NCBI GenBank assembly: GCA_903873295.1
Contig: CAIQNV010000156.1
Coordinates: 19,671-83,670, forward strand
DNA length: 64,000 nucleotides
Reading direction: 5' to 3'
Source of the DNA: an uncultured Elusimicrobia bacterium
GTDB lineage: Bacteria > Elusimicrobiota > Elusimicrobia > Elusimicrobiales > UBA9959
Position 1 is the first letter of the stretch. Each line of letters starts with the position of its first letter. This document shows, piece by piece, positions 1,755 through 64,000 of this stretch. The translations under genes and the position numbers were made by a program. The notes under the pieces are model-generated. The model saw nothing but the letters and a program-made list of their open reading frames with translations, did not search any database and was not told the DNA's origin.

Positions 1755-1775
1755 CGGGCTTTTGGGTTTAGCCCG
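1755..1775 (+). terminator. Possible weak terminator hairpin after the deacetylase gene
   Basis: A six-base perfect stem CGGGCT/AGCCCG with a nine-base loop starts one base after the TAA stop. There is no following T-tract, so it may simply be the edge of the repeat element that follows. Confidence 0.3.
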
Positions 1776-1952
1776 GTGACAAGGCCGGTCATGGGGTTGC
1801 CCATTCCGCCGCGCAGGAACCGTTGCGCGGTTCCCCCCGAAGCGGGGCCCCCCTCCCCAAAGCGGCTCCAGGGCAACCCCATGCCCGGCCCGCGGCTGTT
1901 TTACCTCCGGCTAGCGCAGTTTTATATCCAACTACCGGGTATTTACCCACGG
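1764..1952. repeat. Dispersed structured palindrome, copy A
   Basis: Fills most of the 362-base gap 1755-2116, which otherwise holds no gene; the rest is a short AT-richer leader before the next start. About 189 bases are shared with copy B at 36891. Outer arms are at 1783-1802 and 1871-1890 (19 of 20 pairs). Inside lie hairpin GGAACCG/CGGTTCC with loop TTGCG (1816-1834) and hairpin CCCCG/CGGGG (1835-1847). Flanks begin GGGTTTAGC and end near ACTACCGGGTATTTACC. No convincing ORF is carried, so it is a non-coding element. See the findings. Confidence 0.9.
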
Positions 1953-24822: not shown

Positions 24823-24895
24823 AATAAGAATTATACAGTAAGTCGCGCGGGGAAATCTATACTTAGTATCGAAGAGGAAAGCTGCGAGGGGGCCT

Positions 24896-25016
24896 GGCAA
24901 GGGTATGGGCCCGGCGGGCACCGGGTCGGCCACACCGTGGCCGCCCTCCTCACTCGGCCTTCGCGCTTACGCAAGCTCAGGCCTCCGTGAGGGCCCGCCG
25001 AACCCATACCCTTGCC
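24896..25016. repeat. Structured palindrome, element E
   Basis: Outer arms 24896-24919 and 24993-25016 pair at 22 of 24 positions. Inside are CGGCCAC/GTGGCCG with loop ACC, then GGCCT/AGGCC enclosing GCTTACGCA (24965-24973), the loop word shared with elements D and C. With element F it fills most of the 396-base gap 24823-25218, which otherwise holds no gene. Confidence 0.88.
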
Positions 25017-25058
25017 ACCCCTCCACAGGGAACTTAATTGACGAAACTTATTGTGGGG

Positions 25059-25186
25059 GGCTGGCCGGGGCGTTGCCCTGAGCACCCGTTGCGGAAAGGG
25101 GGCCCCGCCATAATTTCCCAAGGCGGGGGGAAACCGACGCAAGGGTTTCCTCTTCCCGGGTGAGCAGGGTAATGCCCCGGCCAGCC
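25059..25186. repeat. Structured palindrome, element F
   Basis: Outer arms 25059-25088 and 25157-25186 pair at 26 of 30 positions; two of the four exceptions could be G-U pairs in RNA. On the minus strand it holds GGAAACC/GGTTTCC around CTTGCGTC, then CCCCGCC/GGCGGGG, followed by CCCCC. That is the same order as copy A (GGAACCG/CGGTTCC, then CCCCG/CGGGG, then CCCCC) but with changed stems. Confidence 0.85.
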
Positions 25187-25218
25187 CTGCCGGGGGCTTG
25201 TGGTTTTTGTTTCCAAAG

Positions 25219-36837: not shown

Positions 36838-36890
36838 CGCTCGCGGGTCCGCGTGAGAGACCGGTTCATATATCGTATTATGGCGCTTCC

Positions 36891-37078: not shown

Positions 37079-37107
37079 AAAACCCGGAAGCGCTCGTATT
37101 ATTTATC

Positions 37108-63726: not shown

Positions 63727-63780
63727 ATATTCCCGGCCTGTGCCAAAGTGACCCCGGAACCTTGAAATTTCTGCGCTACC

Positions 63781-64000
63781 GGGTTTAGCATGGGTACGGG
63801 CCGGTCATGGGGTTGCCCATTCCGCCGCGCAGGAACCGTTGGCCGTCTGAAGAGCATAGCTTGATACGGCACGGGCATAGCCCAGCGCGGTTCCCCCCGA
63901 AGCGGGGCCAGCCACGCATAAACCGCATAGCGGTTTTGCGCGGTCCCGGCTCGGCGGTTTTGCTTACGCAGAAAACCGCCTCCGCCCTTGCGGCCCGGAC
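63781..64000. repeat. Dispersed structured palindrome, copy C (chimeric, runs off window)
   Basis: Begins like copies A and B (63781-63840, GGGTTTAGC through GGAACCGTT). A 44-base insert (63841-63884) carrying GCCGT/ACGGC and GGGC/GCCC hairpins sits in the loop of the first inner hairpin. The copy A sequence resumes (GCGCGGTTCCCCCCGAAGCG), then a second extra block follows with AAACCGCATAGCGGTTT and GGCGGTTTT/AAAACCGCC around GCTTACGCA (63962-63970), the element D/E loop word. The 3' arm lies beyond the window. Confidence 0.85.

What the first reader, a model, noticed from the sequence alone, without database searches (positions are those of the whole stretch)
63781..64000. Copy C shows modular hairpin insertions inside hairpin loops
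Relative to A and B, copy C has 44 extra bases placed exactly in the TTG/CG loop of the first inner hairpin, themselves made of two hairpins. It then carries a second block resembling the core of elements D and E. Insertion of stem-loop modules into loops of other stem-loops suggests the elements grow or recombine through single-stranded hairpins.
Basis: seen in the sequence. Interest (0 to 1): 0.68.

Follow-up and report, generated by a model that had tools for sequence, protein, structure and literature searches.

The report
Nested mosaic of small mobile palindromes
In an uncultured Elusimicrobia bacterium, a short jumping element found in about 77 copies carries other, independent jumping hairpin elements at fixed spots inside it, one of which is in turn the landing site of an RNA-guided insertion sequence; the nesting is real, but it looks like serial insertion and module exchange rather than growth through hairpin loops.

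Summary
Copy C (63773-64000) carries exactly 44 extra bases (module M1) in the TTG/CG loop of its first inner hairpin, then 90 bases of a second block (M2). It is cut because the contig ends at base 64000, inside M2. It is not a join artefact: complete copy L002 has the same order and closes its 3' arm, and 77 places in the genome match the left part of the core. Copies occur with neither module, M1 only, M2 only, or both.

The core is a MITE: terminal inverted repeats and 8-10 bp target duplications (copy B in the window: TCGTATTAT on both sides). M1 (46 nt) and M2 (~130 nt) are separate palindromic mobile repeats that also stand alone in other Elusimicrobia genomes. M1 leaves no target duplication, follows TT, and over 39 independent sites shows no preference for hairpin loops. 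M2 sits at a hairpin foot, not in a loop. At least six M1 copies inside the core are split by an IS1111-group (IS110 family) insertion sequence whose 3' non-coding end holds two guides matching M1. Arms and interiors are also swapped between families. It is a new variant of known MITE/BIME-like mosaics.

The parts
63773..63814 (+). Copy C, left outer arms of the core element (GCGCTACCGGGTTTAGC... and GGGCCGGTCATGGGGTTGC)
   Evidence: 96% identical to copy B over the first 69 bases; first base of the match G000:C156:83443
63832..63838 (+). Hairpin 1, 5' arm GGAACCG
   Evidence: sequence; fold
63841..63884 (+). Module M1 (44 nt here, 46 nt in most copies) in the loop of hairpin 1; two hairpins of its own
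63888..63894 (+). Hairpin 1, 3' arm CGGTTCC
   Evidence: sequence; fold
63895..63907 (+). Hairpin 2 (CCCCGAAGCGGGG); other copies have AGCCGGGATAATnAGGCTGGGG instead
63911..64000 (+). Module M2, first 90 of ~130 nt, cut by the contig end
   Evidence: contig length
36882..37093 (+). Copy B, complete core element without modules (MITE, TIR GGYGCTTCCGGGTTTA)
36873..36881 (.). Left target-site duplication of copy B, TCGTATTAT
37094..37102 (.). Right target-site duplication of copy B, TCGTATTAT
1757..1952 (+). Copy A, core element without modules, degenerate outer arms
24888..25024 (.). Element D, another palindromic family; its arms also enclose core interiors elsewhere (L100, L114, L253, L259) and its interior occurs in A-type arms (L083)
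25058..25187 (-). Element E, homologous skeleton to the core (two hairpins plus CCCTTTCC)

Best explanation
Copy C is a composite of three kinds of small mobile palindrome. (1) The core (copies A, B and the shell of C) is a MITE of about 130-215 bp with terminal inverted repeats GGYGCTTCCGGGTTTA. It inserts with 8-10 bp target duplications (shown), so it is probably moved by a DDE transposase acting on the TIRs (inferred; no autonomous partner seen). (2) M1 is a separate 46-nt two-hairpin repeat. It inserts after TT without target duplication (shown) and reached the GTTG loop of the core because that loop offers this target (inferred). (3) M2 is a separate ~130-nt multi-hairpin repeat that occupies a fixed place after hairpin 2 (shown). 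It is found on two core haplotypes that do not otherwise recombine, so it was gained or exchanged more than once (inferred). Composites then spread with the core, and modules reassort by further insertion, excision or gene conversion (inferred). An IS1111-group insertion sequence adds another layer by using M1 as its target, most likely through a bridge RNA (guide match shown, function inferred).
For: TSDs: 9 copies with both arms, mean longest flanking repeat 3.56 vs 0.83 in re-paired flanks, 0/500; TCGTATTAT, CTTGATTAAA, TTAAATTT. M1 free-standing in many unrelated flanks, in tandem arrays, and in loops of two different palindromic families; TT on the left in 38/59 vs 7%; no flank duplication in 43/61. 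M2 free-standing in several genomes and confined to one family of Elusimicrobiota (20 of 295 genomes). All four M1/M2 combinations (43/10/8/3). hp1 and t1 linked 34:12 with no recombinants, yet M2 on both. Structure conserved with covariation. IS: PF01548 + PF02371 and NCBIfam IS110 RNA-guided transposase; guides GTCTGATG and TATGCTCAT in its 3' end (chance 0.001); six left junctions all inside M1 in the core.
Against: No autonomous element with the core TIRs was seen (only held loci were scanned), and no mobilising enzyme for M1 or M2 was found. Only 9 copies keep both arms and 5 of those show no TSD, so part of the family may spread or change by recombination. M1 could be in the core by a single ancient insertion: all scoreable M1+ copies share one t1 state.
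Confidence: 0.72

Rival explanations
1. Hairpin-loop growth: modules are captured in the loops of single-stranded hairpins, for example at replication forks by an HUH (Y1) transposase of the IS200/IS605 or RAYT kind.
For: M1 sits exactly in a loop; no TSD and a short left target motif resemble IS200/IS605 insertion; the genome has six Y1_Tnp genes; a few free M1 sites are strong hairpins (L197, L274); one M1 tip is itself interrupted by another palindrome (L222).
Against: 39 independent M1 sites show no loop preference (p=0.43). M2 is not in a loop. None of 35 Y1_Tnp loci of the genus has M1, M2 or core nearby. The core has TSDs.
Confidence: 0.13
2. Composite amplification only: one ancestral core acquired M1 and M2 once; all combinations arose by homologous recombination or gene conversion among dispersed copies.
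For: Insertion points are identical in all copies and even in core-like elements of other species; markers show four-gamete patterns.
Against: hp1 and t1, which flank the M2 site, show no recombinants in 46 scoreable copies while M2 lies on both haplotypes; M1 and M2 exist as independent elements.
Confidence: 0.12
3. Assembly artefact at a contig end.
For: Copy C ends at the contig end, and many contigs of this MAG end in these repeats.
Against: L002 has the whole arrangement inside a 39.9-kb contig; L003 shows the same order in another contig; independent MAGs show M1 or M2 at the same places.
Confidence: 0.02
4. The modules are structured RNAs, for example terminators or mRNA stabilisers, kept by selection rather than by mobility.
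For: Strong folds and compensatory changes.
Against: No Rfam match; unrelated flanks and patchy copy numbers between species; no clear bias in neighbouring gene orientation (16 tandem, 6 convergent, 6 divergent; crude gene calls).
Confidence: 0.08

Closest known systems
MITEs (bacterial, e.g. QMITE, Chunjie; review PMC10969869)
   Same: Short, non-coding, high copy number, TIRs, target duplications; a MITE can be the target of an IS1111-group IS (C. burnetii QMITE2)
   Different: Interior is built of exchangeable nested palindromes, two of which are separate mobile repeats with no TSD
REP / BIME / REPIN with RAYT (PMC3733652, PMC3116915)
   Same: Short palindromes with covarying stems, dispersed, mosaic arrangements, targets of IS elements
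   Different: M1 has two hairpins and no unpaired GTAG/CGTC tag; no tyrosine transposase gene flanked by it; modules sit inside a TIR/TSD element
Rickettsia palindromic elements (RPE; described in PMC10969869)
   Same: M2 (125-130 nt palindromic element) lies in frame inside genes in three independent cases
   Different: Most M2 copies are intergenic or inside other palindromes; in the SLFN-type gene it replaces host sequence rather than being added
IS621 (IS110 group) targeting REP elements by bridge RNA (PMC11208160)
   Same: IS110-family DEDD recombinase inserted at one point of a repeated palindrome; guide-like stretches match the target
   Different: IS1111-like layout (long 3' end, subterminal repeats); target is M1 of Elusimicrobia

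Membership tests
MITE | Terminal inverted repeats | tested here: met
   copy B 14-bp perfect arms; TIR GGYGCTTCCGGGTTTA in several copies
MITE | Target-site duplication | tested here: met
   8-10 bp in three copies and 5 bp in one, of nine with both arms; 0/500 re-pairings reach the mean
MITE | Autonomous partner with the same ends | tested here: inconclusive
   none in held own-genome loci; not searched genome-wide
REP/RAYT | Unpaired GTAG or CGTC tag at the hairpin foot | tested here: not met
   in M1 most of CGTC lies in the paired stem (columns 4-6 of A2 pair with 28-30)
REP/RAYT | Y1 transposase gene flanked by the repeat | tested here: not met
   0 of 35 Y1_Tnp loci of the genus
IS200/IS605-derived element (PATE-like), for M1 | No TSD, short left target motif, hairpin ends | tested here: met
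IS200/IS605-derived element (PATE-like), for M1 | Full-length relative with tnpA between the same ends | tested here: inconclusive
   only two isolated first hairpins, no transposase between the halves, in the loci held
RPE, for M2 | In-frame, stop-free insertion in protein genes | tested here: met
   NamZ gene L163; SLFN-g3 helicase genes L164 and L170/L173/L271
RPE, for M2 | Mainly inside genes | tested here: not met
   most of 29 distinct M2 copies are outside genes
IS1111 group of IS110, for the IS in M1 | DEDD_Tnp_IS110 and Transposase_20 domains | tested here: met
IS1111 group of IS110, for the IS in M1 | Subterminal inverted repeats and 3' non-coding end longer than 5' | tested here: met
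   TATGAAAAGGG / CCCTTTTCATA; about 300 vs 123 nt
IS1111 group of IS110, for the IS in M1 | Bridge RNA guiding to the target | tested here: inconclusive
   8-nt direct and 9-nt reverse matches to M1 in the 3' end, chance 0.001; RNA not shown

The most novel reading that the evidence does not exclude
M1 and M2 represent a new class of non-autonomous palindromes that move by an unknown, TSD-free route, repeatedly enter other mobile palindromes at fixed positions and can replace in-frame segments of protein genes, so that elements evolve by nested module exchange.
Probability: 0.2. Interest if true: 0.75.

Novelty: new variant of a known kind. Interest (0 to 1): 0.52.

Why it matters
Mosaic repeats such as BIMEs and BOX elements are usually seen as finished products. 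Here one genome and its relatives show the intermediate states: core alone, core+M1, core+M2, both, and core+M1+IS, with the modules also found free. That makes it possible to ask in what order such mosaics are built and what moves each part. The IS1111-group element with guides matching M1 is a natural case of an RNA-guided IS that uses one mobile repeat as its address inside another.

Tried and rejected
M1 as the MITE of the long body found in its slot: rejected, the body is an IS110-family IS inserted inside M1. RAYT mobilisation: no Y1_Tnp locus carries the repeats nearby. General hairpin-loop targeting of M1: no preference. Known RNA families: no match in the window; weak sub-threshold microRNA-like and M23 hits elsewhere in loci are chance. 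Spread by phages or plasmids: no exact match in viral contigs, no similar DNA in phage or plasmid records. The M1 genome-contig scan gave one hit outside Elusimicrobia (Levilactobacillus, L249) without the rest of M1: chance.

Full report
What is there. The window is bases 19671-83670 of contig C156 of a 3.49-Mb, 157-contig MAG, and the contig ends where the window ends. A 28-base stretch of the core's left part matches 77 places in this genome with up to 3 mismatches and none in the reversed-pattern control. A scan of named genomes for an M1 stretch returned only Elusimicrobia-type MAGs (a few titled just 'bacterium'), plus one chance hit in Levilactobacillus.

Copy C. Its insert in the hairpin-1 loop is exactly 44 nt, 2 nt shorter than in most copies. 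The second block is M2, cut after 90 of ~130 nt by the contig end.

Chart of modules. Of 74 separated core copies, most have no insert, 8 have M1 only, 10 M2 only and 3 both; five more carry M1 split by an IS and stop at the contig end. Hairpin 2 has two versions, and one is found both with and without M1. Outer arms are exchangeable too: D-type arms around the core interior (L100, L114, L253, L259), A-type arm with D interior (L083), and interiors in either orientation relative to the A-type arm (L018, L096, L113, L268).

The modules are independent. M1 stands free in many unrelated contexts, in tandem arrays of 46-bp units, in the loop of the GGAACC hairpin in several species, and in a different palindrome (GGCCGGGGTTTTG^CCCCGC) in another. 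Its inner stem varies freely while its CATAG tip is nearly fixed; covariation exceeds all shuffles. M2 is likewise free-standing in several genomes, folds into a conserved multi-hairpin structure with ten compensatory pairs, and is confined to one family of Elusimicrobiota in a sample of 295 genomes of the phylum.

How it works. Core: nine copies keep both arms; three have 8-10 bp direct repeats and one 5 bp, far above re-paired flanks. Copy B shows TCGTATTAT at 36873-36881 and 37094-37102. That is the mark of a TIR/TSD element. M1: TT on the left in 38 of 59 sites against 7% background, no flank duplication in 43 of 61, and no preference for hairpin loops over 39 independent clusters. M2: on two core haplotypes (hp1/t1) that show no recombinants, so it entered or was exchanged more than once.

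An RNA-guided IS inside M1. In at least six places M1 within the core is split by a ~1.45-kb IS (C129 complete, L285; left ends in C149, C60, C55, C44 and C43; right ends in C47 and C85). Its 338-aa protein is an IS110-family DEDD recombinase. The long 3' end and subterminal repeats are of the IS1111 type as described in PMC11208160. The 3' end holds GTCTGATG and, 25 nt upstream, TATGCTCAT, which match the two sides of the M1 target.

Mobiliser. Y1 transposases are present (six in this genome), but none of 35 loci across the genus has the repeats nearby. What moves M1 and M2 is unknown.

Limits. TSD evidence rests on few copies with both arms. Gene neighbourhood was assessed only with a crude ORF caller. 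The four-gamete markers t2 and t3 are single bases and may recur by mutation, so the argument rests on M1, M2, hairpin 2, hp1 and t1.

Noticed in passing
L170:312-2732 (-), L164:634-2085 (+), L271:2-541 (+, own genome C124), L173: SLFN-g3 helicase genes of several genus members carry M2 in frame (VRPGFRARHNYASRPGRKAGGDF...). The 807-aa L170 protein holds several further repeat-derived stretches (about residues 193-244, 493-568, 704-754) that match many scattered places. Against orthologues these stretches replace host residues, including the Walker A motif, rather than being added.
   Followed up: partly
L163:1156-2736 (+): M2 in frame directly after MKK at the start of a NamZ (exo-beta-N-acetylmuramidase) gene, ahead of a signal-peptide-like stretch.
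   Followed up: partly
L178:5499-6119 (-): M1 lies in frame between a gas vesicle protein domain (PF00741) and GvpK (PF05121), joining them in one open frame.
   Followed up: partly
L154 (positions about 1500-1700), L166 (130-300): Tandem arrays: M1 in 46-bp units (G018) and the first part of M2 in 69-bp units (G001).
   Followed up: no
L222 and L187: M1 copies interrupted by other palindromes, one exactly in the CATAG tip (CCTGCCTGCCGGCAGACAGG), one at the hairpin foot.
   Followed up: no
L288 (G003:C1): A related IS110-family IS inserted at a different site; its 3' end has GGTTATTGG where the window species has GTCTGATGG, resembling its own left flank GTGTTAATGG, as expected if the guide follows the target.
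   Followed up: partly
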